A stretch of DNA of 38,872 nt from Solirubrobacteraceae bacterium (GTDB taxonomy: Bacteria > Actinomycetota > Thermoleophilia > Solirubrobacterales > Solirubrobacteraceae): the NCBI GenBank assembly GCA_031177685.1, contig JAPSGI010000021.1:1-38872 (forward strand), given 5' to 3'. Position numbers and translations under genes: made by a program. The first letter of the stretch is position 1. Each line of letters opens with the position of its first letter. Below, one piece after another: positions 188-25,923 of this stretch. The notes beneath the pieces were generated by a model. The model saw only the letters and a list, made by a program, of their open reading frames with translations, was not told the origin of the DNA and did no database searches.

Positions 188-340
188 ATGGTCATCAACT
201 GCGACTGCGGTTACGTGGCGCGGGGCGAGGACGAGCAGAAGCTGCTCGAGGACGCGCGTCAGCACATCGCCGACCAGCATCCGGACATGGTCGGCAAGGT
301 GACCGACGAGCAGCTGCTGTCGATGGCGACGGACGGCTGA
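188..340 (+). CDS. DUF1059 family small protein (50 aa)
   Basis: This 50-residue protein begins MVINCDCGYVARGEDEQ and ends in a short helix and an acidic tail. The pattern is Cys5-x-Cys7, a helix, then His26 and His31 (QHIADQH). This Cys/His arrangement is typical of DUF1059 proteins and looks like a small metal-binding fold; metal binding is inferred. Function is unknown in the family. The ATG at 188 follows a strong GAGAGGAGG Shine-Dalgarno sequence (from 175) at normal spacing, one of few clear ones here. A related 57-aa protein sits inside the pentose phosphate operon at 15753-15926. Confidence 0.8.
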   Translation: MVINCDCGYVARGEDEQKLLEDARQHIADQHPDMVGKVTDEQLLSMATDG

Positions 341-13069: not shown

Positions 13070-14539
13070 ATGCCGTCGCGCCGGTTGGCCGCCCTCCTCG
13101 CCGCCGCCGCCCTGGGCGCCGCCGTCGCGGCGACGGTGCTGCTCTCCGGTGGCGACGGCGGCGAGGATCGTCCCGCCGTCACCGGCCGCCCCACGATCGT
13201 GCAGGACGACGCGCAGGTCCTGCACCGATCCACGCGCGAGGTGCGGCGAACCGTGCGCACCTTGCGCGCGCTGGGAGTCGACTGGCTGCGCGTGACCGCG
13301 AACTGGTCGTTCGTGGCGCCGGCGCCGCGCTCGCCGCGCCGGCCGCGGTTCCTCGCCTCCGATCCGCGCGCGTATCCGCGCGGCGCGTGGGCGAAGCTGG
13401 ACCGGGCGGTGCGCGAGGCGCGCAGCGCCGGGCTGGCGGTCTCCATCGACATAGCGTTCTGGGCGCCCCGCTGGGCCACCGCCCGCCCCGCGCCGGAGCC
13501 CGACCGCCAGCGCGACGGCATCGACCCCGCGGCCTACGCGGACTTCGCCGAGGCCGTCGTCCGCCGCTACGGCGACCGCGCCGTCGCCTACACGATCTGG
13601 AACGAGCCCAACTACCAGGTGTTCCTGCGCCCGCAGTGGCGAGTCGGCGCGGGGAACGACGGCGGCTGGGAGGTGGCTTCGGCGGATGCGTATCGGGCGA
13701 TGCTCTTCGCGGCGGTGCCGCGGATCCGGCGCCACGCTTCGCGGGCGCTCGTCCTGATCGGGGGGACCGCTGCGCTGGGGACCTCGGCGCCGCGAACGCG
13801 CAACGATCCGGTCGCACCGCTGCGCTTCGCGCGCGAGCTGACGTGCGTGGACGCGTCCCTGCGGCCCGTGCGGACCGGCGCGTGCGCCGGCTTTCGCCCG
13901 CTGCCGGGCGACGGGTGGGCGCACCATCCCTACGCCCCGCGCCGCGCGCCCGACGTCGGGGACCCCGCGCCCGACACCGCGGTGCTCGCCGACCAGGGCC
14001 GCCTGGCCGACCTGCTCGACCGCCTGCACGCGGCGGGCCGCACGCAGCGGCGCCTCGGCCTGTGGGTGACCGAGTTCGGCTACGAGACGAACCCGCCGGA
14101 CCCCACCCAGCCCGTCACCCTCGCCGAGCAGGCGCGCTGGATGGCCGAGGCGGAGGCGCTCGCGCTCGCCGACCCGCGCGTGCGCTCCTTCGCGCAGTTC
14201 TTGTTCCGCGACCTGCCGGCGCGCCCCGGCGACACGCCGCGCGAGCGCTGGGGCGACTGGCAATCGGGCCTGGAGCTGCCGGACGGTACGGACAAGCCGC
14301 TGATGCGCTCCTTCGCCCGCCCGCTCGTCGTACGCCGCGCCGGACCCGGCCGCGTTGCCGTCTGGGGACGGATCCGCCCCGGCCACGGCCGCCGCCCCGT
14401 CACGGTCACGGCCAACGGCCGCCCGGTCTGCCGCGAGACCACCACTCAGGACGGCACCTTCGCCTGCACCGGCACCGCCGACCCGAGCCGTGTGGACTTA
14501 GCCGCCTATATCGCGGTCAACTCCACACCAGGCGGCTAG
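13070..14539 (+). CDS. Secreted clan GH-A-like glycoside hydrolase
   Basis: The 489-residue protein has an N-terminal hydrophobic segment (6-26) that acts as a signal peptide or membrane anchor. The barrel region (about 40-420) has TANWSFVAP early, AYTIWNEPNY with Glu179 as acid/base and LWVTEFGYET with Glu335 as nucleophile, the NEP/TEFG pairing of GH5/GH39-like retaining enzymes. A short beta-sandwich-like C-terminus follows (about 430-489, RRPVTVTANGRPVCRETT). The substrate is unknown. It differs in sequence from the glycosidase at 2799-4244 but has the same design. Its TAG shares the CTAG tetranucleotide with the convergent rpiA stop. Confidence 0.78.
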   Translation: MPSRRLAALLAAAALGAAVAATVLLSGGDGGEDRPAVTGRPTIVQDDAQVLHRSTREVRRTVRTLRALGVDWLRVTANWSFVAPAPRSPRRPRFLASDPRAYPRGAWAKLDRAVREARSAGLAVSIDIAFWAPRWATARPAPEPDRQRDGIDPAAYADFAEAVVRRYGDRAVAYTIWNEPNYQVFLRPQWRVGAGNDGGWEVASADAYRAMLFAAVPRIRRHASRALVLIGGTAALGTSAPRTRNDPVAPLRFARELTCVDASLRPVRTGACAGFRPLPGDGWAHHPYAPRRAPDVGDPAPDTAVLADQGRLADLLDRLHAAGRTQRRLGLWVTEFGYETNPPDPTQPVTLAEQARWMAEAEALALADPRVRSFAQFLFRDLPARPGDTPRERWGDWQSGLELPDGTDKPLMRSFARPLVVRRAGPGRVAVWGRIRPGHGRRPVTVTANGRPVCRETTTQDGTFACTGTADPSRVDLAAYIAVNSTPGG

Positions 14540-15174
14540 GAGCGGTGCTCGACGGTGTCGCCGCGGCCGATGAGGACGTCGGAGACGAGGGACGGTGGGA
14601 AGAGCCCGTGCTCGACCACGCCCGGGACGGCGGACAGGCGGGCCGCCAGGGCGGCCGGGTCGCCGATCTCGCCGGTGTAGTCGGCAATCGCGTTGCCGTC
14701 CGGGCTGTCCGGCGTGCCGGCGCGCACCTCGGCCGTCCCGAGCTCGCGCAGCGTCGCGGCGAGGCCGTAGCGCAGCAGCTCGAGCGGGACCGGCGCGCGG
14801 ATGGCGTCGACCGGCTTCGACGAGTCGGCGACGACGACGAAGCGGTCGGCCGCCGCCGCGACCACCTTCTCGCGCGTGTGCGCGGCGCCGCCGCCCTTCA
14901 CGAGCCAGCCGTCGGGCGCGATCTGGTCCGCGCCGTCGATCGCGACGTCGAAGCGGTCGATCGACTCGAACGCCTCCACCCGCAGGCCGACCTCCCGCGC
15001 GGCGTCCGCGGTCCGCGGCGACGTGGCCACGCAGCGCAAAGAGAGCCCGCGCGCGGCGAGCGCCGGCAGCAGGAAGGCCACCGTCGACCCGGTGCCCAGA
15101 CCCACCACCATCCCGTCCTCCACCAGCTCCGCGGCCGCCTCCGCGGCCACCCGCTTCTCCGCCTCGCCGCTCAT
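14536..15174 (-). CDS. rpiA: Ribose-5-phosphate isomerase A
   Basis: RpiA interconverts ribose-5-phosphate and ribulose-5-phosphate. The 212-residue protein has GLGTGSTVAFLL (25-36, phosphate loop), DGADQ (80-84) and LVKGGGAAHTREK (91-103). These give Asp80, Asp83, Lys93 and catalytic Glu102, matching Asp81/Asp84/Lys94/Glu103 of E. coli RpiA. Length is normal for the family. The usual DGADE is DGADQ here, a change outside the catalytic set. It is the last gene of the pentose phosphate operon. ATG 15174 overlaps the histidine phosphatase stop by 4 nt, and its own stop shares CTAG with the convergent glycosidase gene. Confidence 0.95.
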   Translation of the reverse strand: MSGEAEKRVAAEAAAELVEDGMVVGLGTGSTVAFLLPALAARGLSLRCVATSPRTADAAREVGLRVEAFESIDRFDVAIDGADQIAPDGWLVKGGGAAHTREKVVAAAADRFVVVADSSKPVDAIRAPVPLELLRYGLAATLRELGTAEVRAGTPDSPDGNAIADYTGEIGDPAALAARLSAVPGVVEHGLFPPSLVSDVLIGRGDTVEHRS

Positions 15175-15752
15175 GCCACCGACTCGTTCCACAGCCACAC
15201 CGCCGGGCGCTCGTGCTCGCCGCCGAGCACGCACAGGGTGGCGGTGGACAAGGCGAAGCGGCCCGCGTCGCGGGCCGGGAACCCGAGCCAGCGCGCCGCC
15301 ACCACGCGCAGGCAATGACCGTGGCCGAACAGAGCCACGTCGCCGCCCGCGGCGCGAACCTCGGCGAGCACGCGGTCGGCCCGCTCGCCTACCTGCTCGG
15401 CCGTCTCCCCGCCGGGGCAGCCGTCGTCGAACAGGTACCAGTCGGGCCGTTCCTCGCGGATTCGCTTCGACGTGAGGCCCTCGTACTCGCCGTAGTCCCA
15501 CTCGCGCAGGTCGTCGCGCAGCTGCGCCGCGTCCCCCAGGCCGGCCAGCCGGCACGTCTCCACGGCCCGGCTCAGCGGGCTGGACAGCACGAGCGCGAAC
15601 GAGCGGCCGGCGAGCCGCTGCGCCAGCGCCAGGGCCTGCGCCCGGCCGGCCTCCGTCAGCGGGATGTCCGTGGACCCCGTGTGCTGCCCGGACAGGCTCC
15701 ACTCCGTCTCGCCGTGCCGCACGAGCACGACGTCGTGTCCGGTCCGGGCCAA
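15171..15752 (-). CDS. Histidine phosphatase family protein (phosphoglycerate mutase-like)
   Basis: The 193-residue protein has the RHGE motif in VVLVRHGETEW (Arg12, phospho-acceptor His13, Glu15), SSPLSRAVET with the second phosphate-binding Arg, Glu near 84 in REWDYGEYEG and the second His144 in LFGHGHCLRV. It may be a phosphoglycerate mutase, sugar phosphatase or related enzyme; its short length and operon position favour a sugar-phosphate phosphatase. The start is TTG at 15752, directly after the TAG of the 57-aa gene (TAGTTG), with no room for a Shine-Dalgarno sequence outside the upstream coding region. Translation therefore probably depends on termination-reinitiation. Confidence 0.88.
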   Translation of the reverse strand: MARTGHDVVLVRHGETEWSLSGQHTGSTDIPLTEAGRAQALALAQRLAGRSFALVLSSPLSRAVETCRLAGLGDAAQLRDDLREWDYGEYEGLTSKRIREERPDWYLFDDGCPGGETAEQVGERADRVLAEVRAAGGDVALFGHGHCLRVVAARWLGFPARDAGRFALSTATLCVLGGEHERPAVWLWNESVA

Positions 15753-15926
15753 CTACGCGTCCGTCGCGTCGTAGGCCTCGCGCTCGACCATCCCGCGGGC
15801 CTGGTCCTCGCCGACGCCGGCGTCGGCGTGGCGCTCCGCGAGGTGGGCGGCCAGCGCCCCGGTCAGCTCGTCGTCGTCGGCGGCCTGGACCACCTCGCCG
15901 CACAGGTCGCATTCGATCACCCGCAT
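15753..15926 (-). CDS. Small CxxC/HxxxxH protein, DUF1059-like (57 aa)
   Basis: The sequence runs MRVIECDLCGEVVQAADDDE, then LTGALAAHLAERHADAG and an acidic helical tail. Cys6-x2-Cys9 and His28-x4-His33 would make a compact zinc-finger-like site, the same layout as the DUF1059 protein at 188-340. GGGGGCAGC just before ATG 15926 is a usable ribosome binding site. It lies 22 nt after the ROK gene stop and abuts the TTG of the phosphatase gene, so it is a full member of the pentose phosphate operon. Function is unknown. Its place among the sugar-phosphate enzymes suggests an accessory or regulatory microprotein. Confidence 0.8.
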   Translation of the reverse strand: MRVIECDLCGEVVQAADDDELTGALAAHLAERHADAGVGEDQARGMVEREAYDATDA

Positions 15927-15948
15927 GCTGCCCCCTTCGTTCGCAGTC

Positions 15949-16899
15949 TCATCGCACCGCCTCCTGAACCGCCAGCAGCGCCGCGCCGTACACGCCCGCG
16001 CGCACGCCGTGGCGCGCCAGGCGGATCCGCGTCCGCTCCCCGACGCCCGTCAGCACGTACCCGCGCGCGGTCTGCTCAGCGGGCTCCAGCAGCAGCTCGC
16101 CCCCCGTCGCCACCCCGCCCCCGATCACGACCTCCTCGGGATCGAACAGGTTGATCGCGCTGGCGATCCCGATCCCCAGCCGCTCGCCGACCACGCGCAG
16201 CAGGTCGAGCGCCTCCTCGTCGCCGTCGCGGGCGAGCCGGACCACGTCCTCGCCGCTGATCTCCTCGCCCGCGGCGCAGGCGCGGCCGAGCCCGCCGGCG
16301 GGGTTCTCCCGCGCGGCCTCGCGCGCCAGGCGGTCGAGCGCGGTCCCCGCCGCGAGCGCCTCCAGCGAGCCCGGCTGGGGGAAGCGCTCCGCGGGCGGCG
16401 GGGCGCCCCTCGAGAGGTCGAGGCCGATCAGGATGTGGCCCATCTCCGCCCCCGCGCCGGTGGCACCGCGGAACAGGCGGCCGTCCAGGACCAGGCCGCC
16501 CCCCACGCCGGTGCCCACGGTGAACATCACGAGGTTGTGCGTGGTCAGGCGCCCGCCCTCGTGCGCCTCGGCCAGCGCCGCCACGTTCGCGTCGTTGTCC
16601 ACGAAGACCGGCAGCGACAGGCGCTCGGTGAGCAGGTTGCGCAGCGGCACCCCCTCCAGCGGAACGTTCACGCCGGACTTGGCCGTCCCCGTGGCGAATT
16701 CGACCGCCGACGGGATCCCGACCCCCACCGCGCGCGTCTCGCCATCGCGCAGGGCCTCGATCGTGCCGGCCAGCTGGTCGACCAGCTCCTCGGCGGTTCC
16801 CTTGCGCGTCGGCTCCACGCGCGGCTCGGACATCTTTCCATCCGCGAGGAGCGCCGCCGAGACCTTCGTCCCGCCCACGTCGACTCCGAGGTACTTCAC
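15949..16899 (-). CDS. ROK family sugar kinase (glucokinase-like), zinc cysteines absent
   Basis: The 316-residue protein has the ATP-binding DVGGTK (7-12), FVDNDANVAALAEAHEG (catalytic Asp103), TVGTGVGGGLVLDG and GAEMGHI (Glu152, His155), and ends NLFDPEEVVIGGG. It should phosphorylate glucose or a related hexose at C6, feeding zwf. ROK kinases normally carry CxCGxxGCxE around a zinc ion after the His. Here that stretch reads ERFPQPGSLEALAAGTAL, so the final Glu180 is kept but all three cysteines are missing, while His155 remains. GTG 16899 overlaps the pgl stop by 4 nt. The kinase role is secure; the exact sugar is inferred from the operon. Confidence 0.9.
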   Translation of the reverse strand: MKYLGVDVGGTKVSAALLADGKMSEPRVEPTRKGTAEELVDQLAGTIEALRDGETRAVGVGIPSAVEFATGTAKSGVNVPLEGVPLRNLLTERLSLPVFVDNDANVAALAEAHEGGRLTTHNLVMFTVGTGVGGGLVLDGRLFRGATGAGAEMGHILIGLDLSRGAPPPAERFPQPGSLEALAAGTALDRLAREAARENPAGGLGRACAAGEEISGEDVVRLARDGDEEALDLLRVVGERLGIGIASAINLFDPEEVVIGGGVATGGELLLEPAEQTARGYVLTGVGERTRIRLARHGVRAGVYGAALLAVQEAVR

Positions 16900-17606
16900 G
16901 ACCCGACCTCCAGCCGCTCGGCCGCCGCAGCGTCGATCAGGACCGTGAGCGAGCCCGACTCCGGCGCCACCAGCGAGGCCGGCGTGTCCGGGTCGGGCGT
17001 GCCGCCGAACGCCCGCGCCGCCGCCTCCGCCTTCGCCGCGCCGGTCACCAGGAAGGCCACCTCGCGCGCGGCGTCGAGCACGGGCAGCGTGAGCGTCACC
17101 CGCGGGACGAACGGCTCCAGCCCCGCCTCCGGCACCCCGACGGCCAGCCGATCGGTCACGTCGAGCTCCGGGCGGCCGGGGAACAACGATGCGCAGTGGC
17201 CGTCCGAGCCCAGCCCGAGCAGCACGAGGTCCAGCGAGGGCATCCCCGCGCCGAACACCGAGCGCAGCCGCGCCTCGTAGTCGGCCGCCCCCTCTCGCGG
17301 ACCGCGCTCGGCCAGCATCCGCTCCACGCGCGGTGCCGGCCCCGCGATCCGGTTCAGCAGCGTGCGCTGCGCCATGCCCCAGTTCGACCGCTCGTCGTCG
17401 GGCGCGACGCAGCGCTCGTCGCCGAACCACAGCGTGGCGCCCGACCAGTCCAGGTCCAGCGCGGCGGCGCGCTCGTAGGCCGCCCCGGGCGTGGAGCCGC
17501 CTGTCAAGGCGACGTGCCCGCCCGCCGCGACGTGGCGCGCGAGCAGGTCCGCGGCGGCGGCCGCGGGATCTGAGAGCACGCGCACGTCGAGCGCGCGCTC
17601 GGTCAA
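16896..17606 (-). CDS. pgl: 6-phosphogluconolactonase (DevB/Pgl type)
   Basis: Pgl hydrolyses 6-phosphoglucono-1,5-lactone made by Zwf to 6-phosphogluconate. The 236-residue protein has HVALTGGSTPGAAYE (phosphate loop), TLWFGDERCVAPDDERSNWGMAQRTLL and LGLGSDGHCASLFPG, the family signature in which the usual Thr after DGH is Cys. Length is standard. The start is TTG at 17606, overlapping the opcA TGA as TTGA; the next in-frame starts would cut into the first strand. It lies between opcA and the ROK kinase with overlaps on both sides. Confidence 0.94.
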   Translation of the reverse strand: MTERALDVRVLSDPAAAAADLLARHVAAGGHVALTGGSTPGAAYERAAALDLDWSGATLWFGDERCVAPDDERSNWGMAQRTLLNRIAGPAPRVERMLAERGPREGAADYEARLRSVFGAGMPSLDLVLLGLGSDGHCASLFPGRPELDVTDRLAVGVPEAGLEPFVPRVTLTLPVLDAAREVAFLVTGAAKAEAAARAFGGTPDPDTPASLVAPESGSLTVLIDAAAAERLEVGS

Positions 17607-18655
17607 CCCACCATCTCCCGCGCGCAGTCCAGCGCGGGTCCGTAGGTGGGGTCGCGCAGCAGCGCCTGGCGCACGCCCTCGCCGAGGATCCCGCTTTCGC
17701 CGCGCGAGGCGCCCAGCAGCGTCCACGCGTACTCCTCTCCGCGCGGGTCGCGGCGCCGCGCCGCCAGGCCGCCGGGCCCCCGGTCCAGGGAGATCGACAT
17801 CCCGTCCGCGGTCTCGATCGTCACGCCGGCCAGCCCGGGCACGTCCTGGCGCACCGGCTCCAGGCGCAGCTTGACCTCCTGGCGGCGGCCGCGCGCGCGC
17901 CCCTCCAGGAACTCGTTGCGCGCCACCATCGAGCCGGGATCCCAGCCCAGTCGCGAGGACAGCCAGCCGCAGAACAGCAGCGCGGCGGCGACTGAGTCCG
18001 GGCTGTGGCGGACCGTCAGGCGGGCGATCCGGCGCAGCTCGCCGCGCCACTGCGGCGGGTCGAAGGTGGCGGCCACGCGCTCGCGCCACGGCGTCGAGCG
18101 CAGCCACGCCAGGTCGACCACGTACGCGCTGTCGCGCAGGCGCGCCACCCGCGCGAGCGCCGCGTGGGGATCCGGCTCCACCACCGAGTCCGTGAGCACC
18201 ACGTGCGCCAGGCCCAGCAGCGCGTCCACGGCGTCGTCGTGGCCGTGCGGCGACCACACCACGGTGATGACCTCGGACAGGATGACCGCGTCCACGATCG
18301 TCGCGAGTCCCGCCAGGCGCTCGGGTCCCATCCGGATCTCCACCCGCTCGCGCACCACCGCGACCTGCCCGGGGGCGGGCTCGCGGTCGTAGGTCAGCAG
18401 CGCCGTGGCGTCCAGCGAGCGCTTGCCGCGCTCCACCGAGCACAGGACCGTGCGCGACGCGTGGTAGCGCCCGACGGAGTCCAGGCGGTTGGCGATCTCG
18501 CCGCGCCACTCGCGGTCCACGATCGCCACCAGGTTCAGGACGCGCGCCGGGACGTAACCGGCGTGCTCGGCCGCCCGGCGCATCTCCAGCTCGCGCAGCG
18601 CCGCCTCGATCGCCGGCGGCGACGTGTCCTGGGCGCTCCAGACGTCCTCGCTCAC
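17603..18655 (-). CDS. opcA: Glucose-6-phosphate dehydrogenase assembly protein OpcA
   Basis: OpcA is needed for assembly and redox activation of G6PDH in cyanobacteria and is found beside zwf in actinobacteria. The 350-residue protein has ARVLNLVAIVDREW (about 42-55), SRTVLCSVERGKR, the central VDAVILSEVITVVWSPHG and LRDSAYVVDLAWLRSTPWRERVA (about 178-200), which match OpcA. GTG at 18655 lies 7 nt after the zwf stop. No enzymatic motif is present. The adjacent zwf and coupled pgl make the assignment firm. Confidence 0.92.
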   Translation of the reverse strand: MSEDVWSAQDTSPPAIEAALRELEMRRAAEHAGYVPARVLNLVAIVDREWRGEIANRLDSVGRYHASRTVLCSVERGKRSLDATALLTYDREPAPGQVAVVRERVEIRMGPERLAGLATIVDAVILSEVITVVWSPHGHDDAVDALLGLAHVVLTDSVVEPDPHAALARVARLRDSAYVVDLAWLRSTPWRERVAATFDPPQWRGELRRIARLTVRHSPDSVAAALLFCGWLSSRLGWDPGSMVARNEFLEGRARGRRQEVKLRLEPVRQDVPGLAGVTIETADGMSISLDRGPGGLAARRRDPRGEEYAWTLLGASRGESGILGEGVRQALLRDPTYGPALDCAREMVG

Positions 18656-18662
18656 CGCTGCC

Positions 18663-20201
18663 TCACAGCGGGCGCCAGGTGCGGCCCTCGCGCGCGAGCA
18701 GCTCGTCCGCCAGCGCCGGGCCGGCGCCGCCCGCCGGGTACTGCGCGACGTCGCCACGGTCCTGCTCCCACGCGGTCAGGATCGGGTCGATCACGCGCCA
18801 CAGCCCGTCGACCTCGTCGTTGCGCGTGAACAGCGTGGCATCGCCGCGCATGGCGTCCATGATCAGGCGCTCGTAGGCCTCCGGCGACTGCGACAGGAAC
18901 GTCGTTCCGTAGTGGAATTCCATGTTCACCGGCCGGATGCGCATGCGCGCGCCGGGGATCTTGGCCCCCAACGACAGCGACACGCCCTCGTCGGGCTGGA
19001 CGGTCAGGACGAGCTGGTTGGGCTGCACGCCCAGCGATCCCTGCGCCTGGAAGGCCAGGTGCGGGACGGGCTTGAGCTCCACGGCGATCTCGGTCACCTT
19101 GCGGGCCAGGCGCTTGCCGGTGCGCAGGTAGAACGGCACGCCGGCCCAGCGCCAGTTGGAGACCTCCAGGCGCAGCGCCGCGTAGGTCTCGGTCTTGGAG
19201 TCCGCCGGCACGCCCTCCTCCTGCAGGTAGCCCGGCACCTCCTCCCCCGCCTCGCGCCCCGCCGCGTACTGCCCGCGCACCGCCATCTGCGGCACCTCCT
19301 CGACGGTGGGCGCGCGGATGGCCTGGATCACCTTGACCTTCTCGTCGCGCACCTGGTCGGCGCTGAAGGAGATCGGCGGCTCCATGCAGACGTTGGCCAT
19401 CAGCTGGAGCATGTGGTTCTGCACGAGGTCGCGCAGGGCCCCCGCGTTGTCGTAGTAGCCGGCGCGCGAGCCGATTCCGATGTCCTCGGCCGCCGTGATC
19501 TGCACGTGGTCGATGTAGTTGCGGTTCCACACCGGCTCGAACATCGTGTTCGAGAACCGGAACGCCATGATGTTCTGGACGGTCTCCTTGCCCAGGTAAT
19601 GGTCGATGCGGAACACCTGGCGCTCGTCGAAGACCGACAGCACCGCGTCGTTGAGCTTGCGCGCGCTGGCCAGGTCGTAGCCGAAGGGCTTCTCCACCAC
19701 CACGCGCGTCTCCGCGCCCTCGCAGCTGGCGAGCTTGCTCTCCCCCAGCGCCTTGACGATCACGGGGAAGAATTCGGGCGCGGTCGAGAGATAGAAGACG
19801 CGGTTGAACGTGATGCCCGCCTCGTCGTCGTAGGCCGCCAGCACCTGCTCGAGCTGCTGGTAGACCTGCGGGTCGTCGAAGACGCCCGGCACGTAGCGCG
19901 CGCGACTCAGCAGCGCGTCGATGACCTCGGGCTTGGGCGACGTGCGCGAGAACCGCTCGATCGACTCGCGCATCTCCCCGATGAAGTCCTCGTGCTCCTT
20001 CTCGCGCCGCGAGACGCCGACGAGGTTGAAGCGCTCCGGAAGCTGGCCCTCGTGGCCGAGGTTGTAGATCGCCGGCAGCAGCTTGCGGTGGGCGAGGTCG
20101 CCGGTGGCGCCGAAGATCACCAGCGTCGTCGGGTGGACGGGGAGCCGCTCGAGCCCCTCGACCAGGGGGTTCTCGGGAGCGGTCGCGGTGGCCGTCGCCA
20201 T
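18663..20201 (-). CDS. zwf: Glucose-6-phosphate dehydrogenase
   Basis: Zwf oxidises glucose-6-phosphate, the entry step of the oxidative pentose phosphate pathway. The 512-residue protein has the dinucleotide loop VIFGATGDLAHRKLLPA (28-43), GVSRRE at the end of the second strand (arginines that usually bind the NADP 2'-phosphate), EKPFGYD (170-176) and the active-site RIDHYLGKE (198-206, with His201 the substrate-binding histidine). Length fits the family (about 490-515). ATG 20201 starts 2 nt after the gnd stop; an ATATAT-coded alternating Ala/Thr stretch forms a short flexible N-terminus. Followed by opcA. Confidence 0.96.
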   Translation of the reverse strand: MATATATAPENPLVEGLERLPVHPTTLVIFGATGDLAHRKLLPAIYNLGHEGQLPERFNLVGVSRREKEHEDFIGEMRESIERFSRTSPKPEVIDALLSRARYVPGVFDDPQVYQQLEQVLAAYDDEAGITFNRVFYLSTAPEFFPVIVKALGESKLASCEGAETRVVVEKPFGYDLASARKLNDAVLSVFDERQVFRIDHYLGKETVQNIMAFRFSNTMFEPVWNRNYIDHVQITAAEDIGIGSRAGYYDNAGALRDLVQNHMLQLMANVCMEPPISFSADQVRDEKVKVIQAIRAPTVEEVPQMAVRGQYAAGREAGEEVPGYLQEEGVPADSKTETYAALRLEVSNWRWAGVPFYLRTGKRLARKVTEIAVELKPVPHLAFQAQGSLGVQPNQLVLTVQPDEGVSLSLGAKIPGARMRIRPVNMEFHYGTTFLSQSPEAYERLIMDAMRGDATLFTRNDEVDGLWRVIDPILTAWEQDRGDVAQYPAGGAGPALADELLAREGRTWRPL

Positions 20202-20203
20202 GG

Positions 20204-21124
20204 CTACGCCTTCTTGACCGCGTGGCCGCCGAACTGGTTGCGCAGGGCGGCGTTGACCTTGGCCGCGAAGTCGCCCTGGCCGCGCGAGGCGAAGCGCGCG
20301 TACAGCGCCTCGGTGATCACCGGGGTCGGTACGCGCTTGTCGATGGCGTCCTCGACGGTCCAGCGCCCCTCGCCGGAGTCTTCGACCCAGGGCTCCAGCG
20401 CCCCCAGGTCGTTGCCCTCCTGCTCGAAGGCGAAGGCCGCCAGCTCGCACAGCCACGAGCGGATCACGGACCCCTGCATCCACAGGTGCGCGATCTTGGC
20501 CTTGTCGAGCTCGTACTCGCAGTGGTGGAAGAGCCCGAACCCCTCCGCGTAGGCCTGCATGATCCCGTACTCGATCCCGTTGTGGACCATCTTCACGTAG
20601 TGCCCCGCACCGGCCGGTCCGAAGTGTCCCCAGCCCGGGCCATGCTCCTCGGTGGTCGGCGGGGCCAGCACGTCGAGGATCGGCGCCAGGCGCTCCACGG
20701 CCTCGTCGGCGCCGCCCACCATCATGCAGTAGCCCACCTGCAGCCCCCACACGCCGCCGCTGGTGCCCACGTCGACGTAGGCGATGCCCTTCTCGGCCAG
20801 CTTCTCCGCGCGGCGCTTGTCGTCGGTCCAGCGCGAGTTGCCGCCGTCCACGACCGCGTCGCCGGACTCCAGCAGCTCGCGCAGCGTGTCCACGGTCTCC
20901 TCGGTCGGCGCGCCGGCCGGCACCATGATCCACACCGTGCGCGGGGCGTCGAGCTTGGACACCAGGTCCTCCAGCGAGGAGGCCCCGGTGGCGCCGTTGC
21001 TCTCCGCCTCGCTCACCGCCTGCGCATTGAAGTCGAACGCGACCACCTGGTGGTCGGAGTCGCGGTGGATGCGATGGACCATGTTGCCGCCCATCTTCCC
21101 CAGGCCGACGAAGCCCAGTTGCAT
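20204..21124 (-). CDS. gnd: 6-phosphogluconate dehydrogenase, short (YqeC/GndB-like) form
   Basis: Gnd decarboxylates 6-phosphogluconate to ribulose-5-phosphate. The 306-residue protein belongs to the short class rather than the 470-residue classical one. It has GFVGLGKMGGNM (4-15), DGGNSRWTDD (93-102), DVGTSGGVWGLQVGYCMMVGG and HYVKMVHNGIEYG with catalytic Lys178 and Asn182. The second Rossmann strand ends VVAFDFN, with Asp31 where NADP-specific enzymes have Arg/Thr (NRT), so NAD use is likely; this is an inference. ATG 21124 lies 5 nt after the tal-pgi stop. Confidence 0.93.
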   Translation of the reverse strand: MQLGFVGLGKMGGNMVHRIHRDSDHQVVAFDFNAQAVSEAESNGATGASSLEDLVSKLDAPRTVWIMVPAGAPTEETVDTLRELLESGDAVVDGGNSRWTDDKRRAEKLAEKGIAYVDVGTSGGVWGLQVGYCMMVGGADEAVERLAPILDVLAPPTTEEHGPGWGHFGPAGAGHYVKMVHNGIEYGIMQAYAEGFGLFHHCEYELDKAKIAHLWMQGSVIRSWLCELAAFAFEQEGNDLGALEPWVEDSGEGRWTVEDAIDKRVPTPVITEALYARFASRGQGDFAAKVNAALRNQFGGHAVKKA

Positions 21125-21129
21125 GCGGT

Positions 21130-23865
21130 TCAGCCCTCCTCGATCGTGGCCGTCAGGGCGTCCAGCGCCTCCGCGGGATCGCCTTGCAGGCGCAGCCGGC
21201 GCGCCGGCAGGTCGTGGTCGCGCAGCGTGTTGAGGTCGCCGATGGCGGCGGCGTTCTTCAGCGTCGCGAAGGAGTACGGCTCGCCCGGCACCTCGGTGTC
21301 GCGCTCGCCGTCGTGGACGAGCTGCACGAACACGCCGGTCTTCGGCCCGCCCTTGTGCATCTGCCCCGTCGAGTGCTGAAAGCGCGGCCCGTACCCGAAG
21401 GTCACGGCGCAGCCGGTCCGCCGCAGGATCGCCGCCCGCAGGCGCGCGACCGCCTGGTCGAAGCGCGCGCTGGGCTGCAGGTAGCCGAGCAGGGCCACGT
21501 AGTGCGGCGGGCGCGCCTCGCCCACCAGCGCGGCGACGTCCTCCAGGCCGGCGGCGTCCATGTCGGGGAGCGCGCCGTTCGCGCGGAACTCCTCGAGGAC
21601 CGCGTTCGTGTTGTCCTTGGCCTCCTGCACGTTGGGCTGGTCGAACGGGTTGACCCCGAGCACCCAGCCCGCCACCGCGACCGCGAACTCGGCGAAGAAG
21701 AAGATGCGCCCCAGGTCGGTCGGCCCGTGGACGGACAGCGTCACGGTGGGATGCCCGGCCTTGGCCAGCGCCTCCACCTTCGCGTCCAGGTCGGCGTCGG
21801 GCTCGTCGGCGTTGCGCAGGTAGGCGAACAGCCGGTCCTCGCCGTAGGCGTCGGGCGCCAGCAGCGGCTCGTCGGCCACCGGCAGGATGCCCTTGCCGTC
21901 CTTGCCCAGCGACTCGGCCACGAGCTGCTCGGCCCACAGGCCGAAGGACGAGATCGGCTCGGAGACCACGAACGTGAGCTTGTCGCGGCCCTGGAGCGCC
22001 GCCTCACCCGCCAGCAGCCCCATCCACAGCCCCGAGTTGCTGGACCCCGACTGGTAGGAGTTGCAGTTCTGCTCGGCCACCTGCGCGCGTTGCAGCAGCG
22101 CCTCGACCGACACGCCCATGAGCGCCGCGGGCACCAGCCCGAAGTACGACAGCACCGAGTAGCGCCCGCCGATGTTGGGATCGTTCTCGAACACGCGGCG
22201 GAAGCCGTTCTGGTTGGCCAGCGTGACCAGCGGGGAGCCCGGATCGGTGACGGCGGCGAAGTGCCGGCCCGCCCGGCCCGTGCGGTCGAAGAAATGGCGG
22301 AAGTGCGAGAGCGTCTCGATCGTGCCGCCCGACTTCGAGGAAACGACGAAGAACGTCTTGCCGAGGTCGACGGACTCCTCGAGCTCCAGCACGGCCGCGG
22401 GGTCGGTGGAGTCGAGCACGTGCAGGCGCAGCGCGCCCTCGATCTCGCCGAACGAGCGGCGGATCACCTCGGGCCCCAGCGAGGAGCCGCCCATGCCCAG
22501 CAGCGCCGCGTCCGTGTAGCCCTCGGAACGCACCTCGTCGGCGAACGCGCGCAGCTCGGCGGCCTGCTCGAGCATCGGCTCTGAGATCGTCAGCCAGCCA
22601 AGGCGGTCCTCGATCTCCGGCGTGCCCGCCGGCGCCCACAGGGTCGGGTCCTTGCGCCACACCCGCTGCGCCACGCCGTCGCCGATCGCCGCCTTGACCC
22701 GCTCGGCCAGCGGCCGTTCCAGCTCGGGTGGGATCGAGGCCTGGATCGTCGGCGGGCGGTGCGTCACGACGGCGTCGCGCGCGTCGTCCACGCCCTCGAT
22801 CAGGGCGTCCATCGCCTGCTCGAACAGCACGATCCCGTCGTCGAGCAGCTTGTGCGTGACATCGTGCATGTCGATCCCCGCGCCGGCCAGCGCGTCCAGC
22901 TGCGCGGACGGGTCCTGGTCGGCCGTGGCGCCGCGGATCTCCGAGCACTCGGCGGCGGCCAGCAGCGTCGACATCGGCATCGTGTTGACCGTGTCGGGCG
23001 CCACGAGCTCGTCGACGTACTTCGTCTCCGCGTAGCGCGGGTTCTTGACGCCGGTCGACGCCCACAGGGGCCGCTGGACGCGCGCCCCGGCCTCGCGCAG
23101 GGTGGCGAAGCGCTCGCCGTAGAAGACCTCCTTGAAGCGCACGTACGCGGCGCGCGCGTTCGCCACCGCGGCCGTGCCCTGCAGGTCCTCGCGGCCCAGG
23201 CCCTCCAGGCGCTTGTCGACCTCGCTGTCCACGCGCGAGACGAAGAACGAAGCGACGGAGTGCACGTCCAGGGACTTGCCCTCCTCGTGGCGGCGCTCCA
23301 GGCCGCGCACGTAGGCCTCGGCCACCTGCGCGTAGGCCTCGACCGAGAACAGCAGCGTCACGTTGACGTTGATGCCCTCGTAGATCGCCTGCTCGATGGC
23401 GGGGATCCCCTCGTCGGTCCCGGGGATCTTGATCATCACGTTGGGCCGGTCCACACGCTGCCAGTAGTCGCGCGCCTGCTCCAGCGTCGCCTCCATGTCG
23501 CGCGCGAGGCGCGGGTGCACCTCCAGCGACACGAACCCGTCGGCGCCGTCCAGCGAGTCGTGCACGGGCCGCAGCACGTCGGCGGCCATCGAGACGTCCT
23601 GGATCGCGATGCGGTCGTAGATCTCCTTGGCGTCCAGGCCCTCGCGCGCCATCGCCTCCAGATCGTCGTCGTAGTCGTCGGAGCCGAGGATCGCCTTCTC
23701 GAAGATCGCCGGGTTCGACGTGACGCCGCGCAGCGACTCCTCGTCGATCAGGCGCTGCAGCTCGCCGCCCTCGATCAGGGTGCGGCGGATCTGGTCGAGC
23801 CACACGCTCGTACCCGCCTCCGTCAGCGCCCGCAGGCGCGGGTTGACCTGGGCCTGGGTGCTCAT
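21130..23865 (-). CDS. Bifunctional transaldolase / glucose-6-phosphate isomerase
   Basis: One 911-residue chain carries two enzymes. Residues 1-360 are a transaldolase: [25 protein letters not shown] and VMIKIPGT with Schiff-base Lys146. Residues about 385-911 are a phosphoglucose isomerase: [27 protein letters not shown] (near residue 507), the [17 protein letters not shown] loop, and [15 protein letters not shown] near the C-terminus with [10 protein letters not shown](M)HKGGP. The fusion joins fructose-6-phosphate production to its conversion to glucose-6-phosphate, closing the oxidative pentose cycle. ATG 23865 overlaps the tkt TGA (ATGA). Such fusions are known in actinobacteria and others; no frameshift is seen across the join. 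Confidence 0.95.
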
Positions 23866-25880
23866 CCGCTCACCACCTTCCTCGCTCGCGCGACGACGTT
23901 GTCGGGTGTGAACCCGAAGTGCTCGTACAGCGCCTTCTGCGGTCCCGACGCGCCGAAGGTCTCCATCCCGATCACGTCGCCGGCGTCGCCCACCCAGCGG
24001 TACCAGCTCAGCGGGCTCGCGGCTTCGATGGCGAGCCGGGCGCGGCAGCCGGGCGGCAGGACGCTGTCGCGGTAGGCGGCGTCCTGCTCCGCGAAGGTGT
24101 CCATGCACGGCACGGACACCAGCCGGGTGGCGATCCCGTCGGCCTCCAGGCGGTCCGCCGCCGCGTTGGCGATGTGGACCTCGGAGCCCGAGCCCATCAG
24201 GATCAGGTCGGGATCGCCTTCCTTGTAGGACTCGCGCAGCACGTAGGCGCCGCGGCGGATCGCGTCGCGCGGCACCCCGGCGGGGTTCCACGTCGGCACG
24301 CCCTGGCGCGAGAGCGCGAAGCACGTCGGCGTCTCGGTGGAGGCGATCGCGAACTGCCAGGCCAGCGCGACCTCGTTGGCGCCCGCCGGGCGCACCAGGT
24401 TGCAGTTGGGCGTGGCGCGCAGCGCCGCCAGCTGCTCGACCGGCTGGTGCGTGGGCCCGTCCTCTCCCAGCCCGATCGAGTCGTGCGTGAACACGAAGAT
24501 CGAGGGGATGCGCATAAGCGCGGCCAGGCGGATCGCCGCCTTCATGTAGTCGGAGAAGATCAGGAACGTCGCGCCGTATGCGCGCAGGTAGTGCAGGGTG
24601 AGCCCGTTGACGAACGCGCCCATACCGTGCTCGCGGATGCCGAAGTGCAGGTTGCGCCCGCCGTAGGCGCCGCGCTGCACGCTCTCGGCGCCGTCGATCA
24701 GCGTCAGCGTGGAGCCGGCCAGGTCCGCGGAGCCGCCAACCAGCTCGGGGACCGCTCCGGCCGCCCACTGGATCACCTCGCCCGATGACTTGCGCGTGGC
24801 CACCATCCCGGTGTCGACGTGAAAGCGCGGCACGTCGCGTTCCCACCCGTCCGGCAGGCGGCGCTGCGAGATGCGCGTGTACTCGGCGTGCGCGTCGGGA
24901 TCGTCGGCGGCCAGGCCGTCCATGCGCTCGCGCCACTCGCGCTCCCACCCTTCGCCGCGCTCGCGGCACTCGCCGAAGTGCGAGAGAACCTCGTCGGGCA
25001 CCAGGAAGTGCTCGTCGGGCGGCCAGCCGTACGCCTCCTTGGTGAGCCGGATCTCCTCCTCGCCCAGCGGCGCGCCGTGCGCGCCCGCGGTGTCCTGCTT
25101 GTTGGGCGCGCCCTGCGCGATGTGCGTGCGCACCACGATCAGCGAGGGGCGGTCCTCGACCTCCTTGGCCTCGGCTACCGCCTGCTCGAGACGATCGAGC
25201 TCGATGTCCTCGCCGAGGTTGCGCACGTGCCAGCCGTAGGCCTCGTAGCGCGCGCCCACGTCCTCGGAGAAGGCCAGCGCGGTGTCGCCCTCGATCGAGA
25301 TGTGGTTGTCGTCGTAGAAGGCGATCAGCCGGCCCAGGCCGAGATGCCCGGCCAGCGACGCGGCCTCGGACTGGATGCCCTCCTGCATGTCGCCGTCGGA
25401 GGCGATCACGTAGGTGTGGTGGTCGACCACGGTGTGGCCGCGGTTGAAGCGCGCGGCGAGCATGCGCTCGGCCAGCGCCATTCCGCCGGCCGTGGAGATC
25501 CCCTGCCCCAGCGGCCCGGTGGTCGTCTCTATCCCCGCGGCGTGGCCGTACTCGGGATGGCCCGCGGTCGGCGAGCCCAGCTGGCGGAAGCTCTTGAGGT
25601 CGTCGAGGGTGAGCCCGTAGCCGCACAGGTAGAGCATCGAGTACAGGAGCATCGACGCGTGGCCGGCCGACAGGACGAAGCGGTCGCGGTCGGGCCAGCC
25701 CGGGTTGCCCGGGTGGTGACGCATGATCCGCGTGTAGAGGACGTACGCAACCGGGGCGAGCGCCATCGGCGTTCCGGGGTGGCCGGAGTTCGCCTTCTGG
25801 ACGGCGTCCATGGACAGCGTCCGTATCGTGTTGACACAGAGCTGGTCCAGCGCCTGACGGTCGGTCGTCTGCGTGCTCAA
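23862..25880 (-). CDS. tkt: Transketolase
   Basis: Transketolase moves two-carbon units between pentose, tetrose and hexose phosphates using thiamine diphosphate. The 672-residue protein has [12 protein letters not shown] with His34, GPLGQGIS, the ThDP/metal motif [13 protein letters not shown]...DDN (about 157-189), then the pyrimidine domain with [15 protein letters not shown] (catalytic Glu), [20 protein letters not shown] and GSGSEV in the C-terminal domain. TTG 25880 is chosen as start because AGGGGGAG stands 4-11 nt before it; GTG 25919 would add 13 residues unlike transketolase N-termini. First gene of the operon. Confidence 0.95.
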
Positions 25881-25917
25881 ATGCTCCCCCTGGGCGGTCG
25901 GTTGTGGGTCAGGGCCC

Positions 25918-25923
25918 ACCCTA
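25918..25923 (-). promoter_or_regulatory. Predicted -10 of the pentose phosphate operon (TAGGGT)
   Basis: TAGGGT on the minus strand would start transcription near 25911, giving a leader of about 30 nt that holds the AGGGGGAG Shine-Dalgarno sequence of tkt. Unlike most genes here, this operon thus seems to have a leadered mRNA. No clear -35 is visible. The predicted promoter lies 27 bp from that of the divergent treT. Confidence 0.4.

What the first reader, a model, noticed from the sequence alone, without database searches (positions are those of the whole stretch)
15753..15926. CxxC/HxxxxH microprotein embedded in the sugar-phosphate operon
A 57-aa zinc-finger-like protein sits between the kinase and the phosphatase, with its own ribosome binding site and a TAG directly joined to the next TTG start. 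It shares its layout with the DUF1059 protein at 188-340. DUF1059 has no assigned function. Fixed placement among pentose phosphate enzymes would tie the family to carbon or redox control, for instance as a metal- or thiol-based modulator of the dehydrogenases.
Basis: partly seen in the sequence, partly recalled or inferred. Interest (0 to 1): 0.6.

Follow-up and report, generated by a model that had tools for sequence, protein, structure and literature searches.

The report
Zinc-finger-like microprotein in pentose-phosphate operon
A real 57-residue protein with a conserved two-cysteine/two-histidine (probably zinc-binding) site is built into the sugar-phosphate (pentose phosphate) operon of several soil bacteria of the order Solirubrobacterales, always just behind the sugar kinase or isomerase gene, but what it does there is not known.

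Summary
It is a conserved protein of the DUF1059 family, not a chance ORF. Fourteen relatives found in a scan of 84,980 species genomes, all Solirubrobacterales, keep C-x2-C-x18-H-x4-H, and all 14 lie in the same operon directly behind ROK or ROK-rpiB. So the fixed link to pentose-phosphate genes is real for this CxxCGE subfamily. It does not extend to DUF1059 as a whole: nearest relatives outside it (CxCG type) are scattered, and one sister subfamily lies in a sulfur operon (ArsR-rhodanese, metallo-beta-lactamase, DsrE). It is also dispensable: eight sampled operons with ROK lack it. The fold is predicted as a beta-beta-alpha finger plus a helix (pLDDT 89), strongly acidic (pI 4.1-4.7), so DNA binding is unlikely. 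I think it most likely is a metal-stabilised acidic adaptor that binds a product of the operon. The thiol-switch idea for the dehydrogenases has no sequence support: Zwf has no conserved cysteine and OpcA cysteines do not track the gene. The TAG-TTG junction is peculiar to the window. Modest but testable: a new variant of a family without assigned function.

The parts
15753..15926 (-). 57-aa DUF1059-type Cys2His2 microprotein (C6, C9, H28, H33)
15931..15937 (-). Shine-Dalgarno-like AAGGGGG, 4 nt before the ATG
   Evidence: read; purine-rich sites also precede most homologous starts
15171..15752 (-). histidine phosphatase superfamily protein, TTG start joined to the microprotein's TAG
   Evidence: Pfam His_Phos_1 1.5e-52
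15949..16899 (-). ROK family sugar kinase, directly upstream
   Evidence: Pfam ROK 1.3e-58
16896..17606 (-). 6-phosphogluconolactonase-like (pgl)
   Evidence: named by recall of the family from the translation; conserved in order in relatives
17603..18655 (-). OpcA-like glucose-6-phosphate dehydrogenase assembly protein
   Evidence: named by recall from the translation; order conserved
18663..20201 (-). glucose-6-phosphate dehydrogenase (zwf)
   Evidence: named by recall from the translation; mostly 65-76% identical relatives across the family
20204..21124 (-). 6-phosphogluconate dehydrogenase (gnd)
   Evidence: named by recall from the translation; conserved order
21130..23865 (-). transaldolase/glucose-6-phosphate isomerase fusion (tal-pgi)
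   Evidence: translation, 911 aa; named by recall
23862..25919 (-). transketolase (tkt)
   Evidence: named by recall from the translation
14536..15174 (-). ribose-5-phosphate isomerase A (rpiA); many relatives carry rpiB before the microprotein instead
   Evidence: named by recall from the translation

Best explanation
It is a member of the DUF1059 family: a free-standing, acidic Cys2His2 microprotein whose two cysteines (C6, C9) in a beta-hairpin knuckle and two histidines (H28, H33) on a long helix hold one metal ion, probably zinc, so that a 57-residue chain can fold. In Solirubrobacterales one subfamily (CxxCGE) was fixed in the pentose phosphate operon and is made together with its enzymes. 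The most likely way it works is as a small protein-binding adaptor or modulator of a product of that operon, through its acidic helix and conserved C-terminal AYDAxD tail. Shown: conservation, co-location, purifying selection. Predicted: fold. Inferred: metal, binding partner, effect.
For: All 14 relatives found across 84,980 species genomes (plus the window) lie in this operon directly behind ROK or ROK-rpiB. In 201 genomes of the order all matches of 88 bits or more are of this kind, and the next class drops to 66 bits or less and is dispersed. C-x2-C-x18-H-x4-H is kept in 14 of 14, and in DUF1059 proper the same four residues are the only invariant columns although the Cys-Cys spacing varies there. 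Predicted beta-beta-alpha fold, pLDDT 89, superposes on C2H2 fingers at 1.3-1.7 A over about 30 residues. Weak zf-BED match in 8 of 14. pI 4.05-4.67. The small size, charge and operon position recall CP12 and AcnSP, small proteins that bind metabolic enzymes (PMC7760959).
Against: No partner, metal or phenotype has been shown. Eight of the sampled operons containing ROK lack the gene, so the pathway works without it. The AYDAxD tail is shared with family f2 relatives (AYxAxD[AS]) that are not beside pentose phosphate genes, which argues that the conserved surface is not specific to this pathway. No residue pattern in Zwf, OpcA or Pgl clearly tracks the presence of the gene. Superpositions are weak by score (Foldseek E above 1, Z below 4). 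C(P)XCG microproteins of Haloferax can be zinc-free or hold another metal, and AlphaFold cannot tell (PMC11241148).
Confidence: 0.4

Rival explanations
1. It is a general-purpose small metal-binding or stress microprotein of the DUF1059 kind that came to rest in a strongly expressed housekeeping operon and is kept there by vertical inheritance; its job has nothing specific to do with sugar phosphates.
For: DUF1059 relatives occur in many unrelated places; the closest ones outside the operon share the whole layout and the C-terminal motif; the gene is dispensable; all close relatives are from one order, so the co-location may be few or one event.
Against: The neighbours around it have changed (rpiB absent, phosphatase replaced by an acetyltransferase, gnd missing), yet the gene stays behind ROK or rpiB in every genome that has this subfamily.
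Confidence: 0.38
2. It is a thiol or persulfide switch: oxidation or persulfidation of the CxxC pair expels the metal and changes how it acts on G6PDH/OpcA or another enzyme, tying NADPH production to redox state.
For: A sister DUF1059 subfamily (CPCGH) lies in operons with ArsR-rhodanese, metallo-beta-lactamase and DsrE proteins; DsrE or rhodanese genes also neighbour other CxCG members; a DUF1059 gene occurs in group 1m NiFe-hydrogenase clusters (PMC9561532); OpcA in cyanobacteria is a thiol-controlled switch of G6PDH (PMC13071761).
Against: No conserved Cys in Zwf, and the one common OpcA Cys is more frequent where the microprotein is absent. One dispersed relative (L010/L018) has lost the first Cys. 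No redox gene is fixed next to the pentose phosphate form.
Confidence: 0.15
3. It is a DNA- or RNA-binding zinc-finger regulator of the operon.
For: Beta-beta-alpha finger fold and weak zf-BED/C2H2 profile matches.
Against: pI 4.05-4.67 with 13-19 acidic against 3-7 basic residues in all 14 members.
Confidence: 0.04
4. It is a chance open reading frame.
For: Many spurious ORFs of this size exist here, and Pfam scores it below cut-off.
Against: Conservation, selection, ribosome binding sites and position.
Confidence: 0.01

Closest known systems
DUF1059 (Pfam PF06348)
   Same: Invariant Cys-Cys-His-His set with H-x4-H, similar length, same predicted fold; profile-profile probability 97.4%.
   Different: Cys spacing is CxxC (classical DUF1059 C-x6-C or longer, or CxC); C-terminal AYDAxD tail; fixed place in the pentose phosphate operon; the window sequence itself is under the Pfam cut-off.
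zf-BED / C2H2 zinc fingers
   Same: CxxC...HxxxxH order and beta-beta-alpha arrangement; two of ten homologues scanned singly pass the zf-BED cut-off (L112 24.6 and L114 21.6 against 20.6 bits).
   Different: Free-standing 57 aa, acidic, extra C-terminal helix, bacterial; the window sequence does not reach any zinc-finger cut-off.
CP12 and AcnSP (small regulators of carbon enzymes in cyanobacteria; PMC7760959)
   Same: Small proteins acting on central carbon enzymes: a functional analogy only.
   Different: No sequence kinship claimed; CP12 has two disulfide loops, not a Cys2His2 site; no enzyme effect is known here.
C(P)XCG zinc-finger micro-proteins of Haloferax volcanii (PMC11241148)
   Same: Free-standing, mostly metal-binding microproteins under 70 aa.
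   Different: Those have two CXXCG pairs (four Cys), this one has Cys2His2.

Membership tests
DUF1059 (PF06348) | Passes the curated Pfam cut-off (21.1 bits) | tested here: inconclusive
   Window 13.9 bits, below; 6 of 10 homologues of the same subfamily at or above it.
DUF1059 (PF06348) | Four invariant residues Cys, Cys, His-x4-His | tested here: met
   Only invariant columns in DUF1059 proper; 14 of 14 here.
DUF1059 (PF06348) | Profile similarity over the domain | tested here: met
   hhalign 97.4%, E 1.3e-11, 48 columns.
zf-BED / C2H2 zinc finger | Profile match over cut-off | tested here: inconclusive
   Window no match at E 0.1; 8 of 14 relatives match weakly, 2 of the 10 scanned singly pass the cut-off.
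zf-BED / C2H2 zinc finger | Bound zinc | not testable with these tools
   Needs metal analysis.
CP12-like enzyme regulator | Binding to and control of a carbon enzyme | not testable with these tools
   Complex prediction not available; operon position only.

The most novel reading that the evidence does not exclude
A dedicated, metal-stabilised, CP12-like microprotein regulator of the oxidative pentose phosphate pathway (acting on G6PDH/OpcA, ROK kinase or the phosphatase) exists in Solirubrobacterales and gives the first function to a branch of DUF1059.
Probability: 0.2. Interest if true: 0.7.

Novelty: new variant of a known kind. Interest (0 to 1): 0.42.

Why it matters
DUF1059 has no assigned function and only two papers of the searched library name it. 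A subfamily fixed in one well-understood pathway, and a sister subfamily fixed in a sulfur operon, give two concrete places to look for what these small, probably metal-binding proteins do.

Tried and rejected
Viral scan for relatives: none. Solved-structure search by sequence: no true relative; the best row is a repeat protein matching a helix only. Foldseek on the PDB and on viral models: no significant match; ribosomal-protein rows in the second look have Z under 4. NCBIfam: no family for the window protein. A search for Cys or other residues in neighbouring enzymes that track the presence of the gene: nothing convincing; the few fixed differences lie in poorly aligned stretches or are single substitutions. 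Pfam's Globin match (E 0.011, below cut-off) is taken as chance. DNA-binding role rejected on charge. The TAG-TTG join rejected as a meaningful feature because relatives lack it. Papers on COG5466: none.

Full report
What is there. The finding's coordinates hold this ORF only on the minus strand: MRVIECDLCGEVVQAADDDELTGALAAHLAERHADAGVGEDQARGMVEREAYDATDA. It follows the ROK kinase stop by about 20 nt, has a Shine-Dalgarno-like AAGGGGG at 15937-15931, and its TAG is joined to a TTG that starts a histidine phosphatase. Upstream on the same strand lie tkt, a tal-pgi fusion, gnd, zwf, opcA, pgl and ROK; downstream lie the phosphatase and rpiA (ROK and phosphatase confirmed by Pfam, the others named from their translations by recall).

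Is it a gene? ORFs of 50-80 codons are plentiful here by chance, so conservation is the test. Relatives of 45-58% identity share 15 invariant positions. Synonymous changes per site exceed non-synonymous ones in nearly all comparisons (pN/pS mostly 0.2-0.6; higher in comparisons with Ca. S. pratensis and between some near copies). Purine-rich ribosome binding sites precede most starts.

Where do its relatives live? A scan of one genome for each of 84,980 species found 14 relatives: Solirubrobacter soli, taibaiensis, deserti, phytolaccae, sp. CPCC 204708, Ca. S. pratensis and eight metagenome-assembled genomes, six of them labelled Solirubrobacterales and two only Actinobacteria, one of which (L120) is the record behind the window's own genus mate. 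All 14 lie in the pentose phosphate operon, directly behind ROK or behind ROK-rpiB. The scan used two short peptide patterns, so it reaches close relatives only. An independent profile search of 201 genomes of the order gave the same split: matches of 88-108 bits are the operon form (several are in the profile and score high by construction), then a gap to 66 bits and below. The fuller order is tkt, tal-pgi or pgi, (gnd), zwf, opcA, pgl, ROK, rpiB, microprotein, then phosphatase or an acetyltransferase. The window's genus has no rpiB there and the window has rpiA behind the phosphatase.

The limits of the link. Of 40 further zwf regions in the family, eight contain ROK but no microprotein, and in several there is no room for it. 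None of 30 other actinobacterial DUF1059 loci lies within 1.5 kb of a pentose phosphate gene. The nearest dispersed relatives (family f2, MRVIDCxCG...AYEASDA) lie next to various genes: a metallo-beta-lactamase/rhodanese protein and TauE, TauE and ZnuA, a D-Ala-D-Ala carboxypeptidase, or genes read as tig-clpP-clpX. A tree of 34 short sequences cannot resolve much; the operon form groups together apart from one long-branched intruding pair, with weak support, and the sulfur-operon form is a supported clade (98/99).

What is it? The operon form and DUF1059 proper match by profile comparison at 97.4% probability. In DUF1059 proper only four columns are invariant: Cys, Cys, His, His. The Cys spacing varies (x6 or longer, x1, and x2 in the operon form) while all four residues stay, as expected of metal ligands. 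The predicted structure is strand 2-5, strand 12-15, helix 18-32, helix 40-50 (pLDDT 89), and the DUF1059 protein at 188-340 is predicted alike. Against classical fingers the helix and the hairpin are both longer, which would keep H28 and H33 beside the Cys knuckle; this is my reasoning, as I had no coordinates. Weak zf-BED matches and local superpositions on C2H2 fingers agree. Metal is not shown: comparable archaeal microproteins are sometimes zinc-free or hold another metal (PMC11241148).

How does it work? Charge (pI 4.05-4.67) argues against nucleic acid. Co-location with pentose phosphate genes suggests an adaptor or modulator of one of their products, by analogy with CP12 or AcnSP (PMC7760959). 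I put this at about 0.4, close to the rival that it is a general small metal protein that happens to be kept in this operon (0.38). The thiol-switch version draws on the sulfur setting of sister subfamilies, on a DUF1059 gene in group 1m NiFe-hydrogenase clusters (PMC9561532) and on OpcA redox control in cyanobacteria (PMC13071761), but the operon's Zwf has no conserved Cys and OpcA's single common Cys does not track the microprotein.

Verdict. Real, conserved, family membership established through its relatives, context link confirmed for a subfamily but not for DUF1059 at large, function open.

Noticed in passing
L053, L056-L061 (window: none): A DUF1059 subfamily with CPCGH sits in a conserved operon with ArsR-rhodanese regulator, metallo-beta-lactamase (persulfide-dioxygenase-like), DsrE, MFS transporter, methyltransferase and DUF4395: 7 of 9 loci.
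   Followed up: partly
L045, L046, L062: Other CxCG DUF1059 genes are adjacent to DsrE or rhodanese genes, so a sulfur-trafficking link may be wider than one operon.
   Followed up: partly
L017, L055: Family f2 DUF1059 members of one genus lie near TauE/SafE with, in one genome each, a FUR-family regulator or ZnuA; in L017 a phosphatase 58% identical to the window's lies two genes away.
   Followed up: partly
window 188-340: A second DUF1059 protein (CxCG type) of the same genome passes the Pfam cut-off (24.0 bits) and is predicted to fold alike.
   Followed up: yes
window 14536-15174; L110, L112-L117, L119: The window carries rpiA behind the phosphatase where many relatives carry rpiB between ROK and the microprotein: an exchange of unrelated ribose-5-phosphate isomerases within one operon.
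   Followed up: no
L126, L128: DUF1059 genes next to TspO/MBR genes in two genomes of one actinobacterial genus.
   Followed up: no
L010 (G046): One DUF1059 relative has lost the first Cys but has CGH, so one ligand may be replaced.
   Followed up: no
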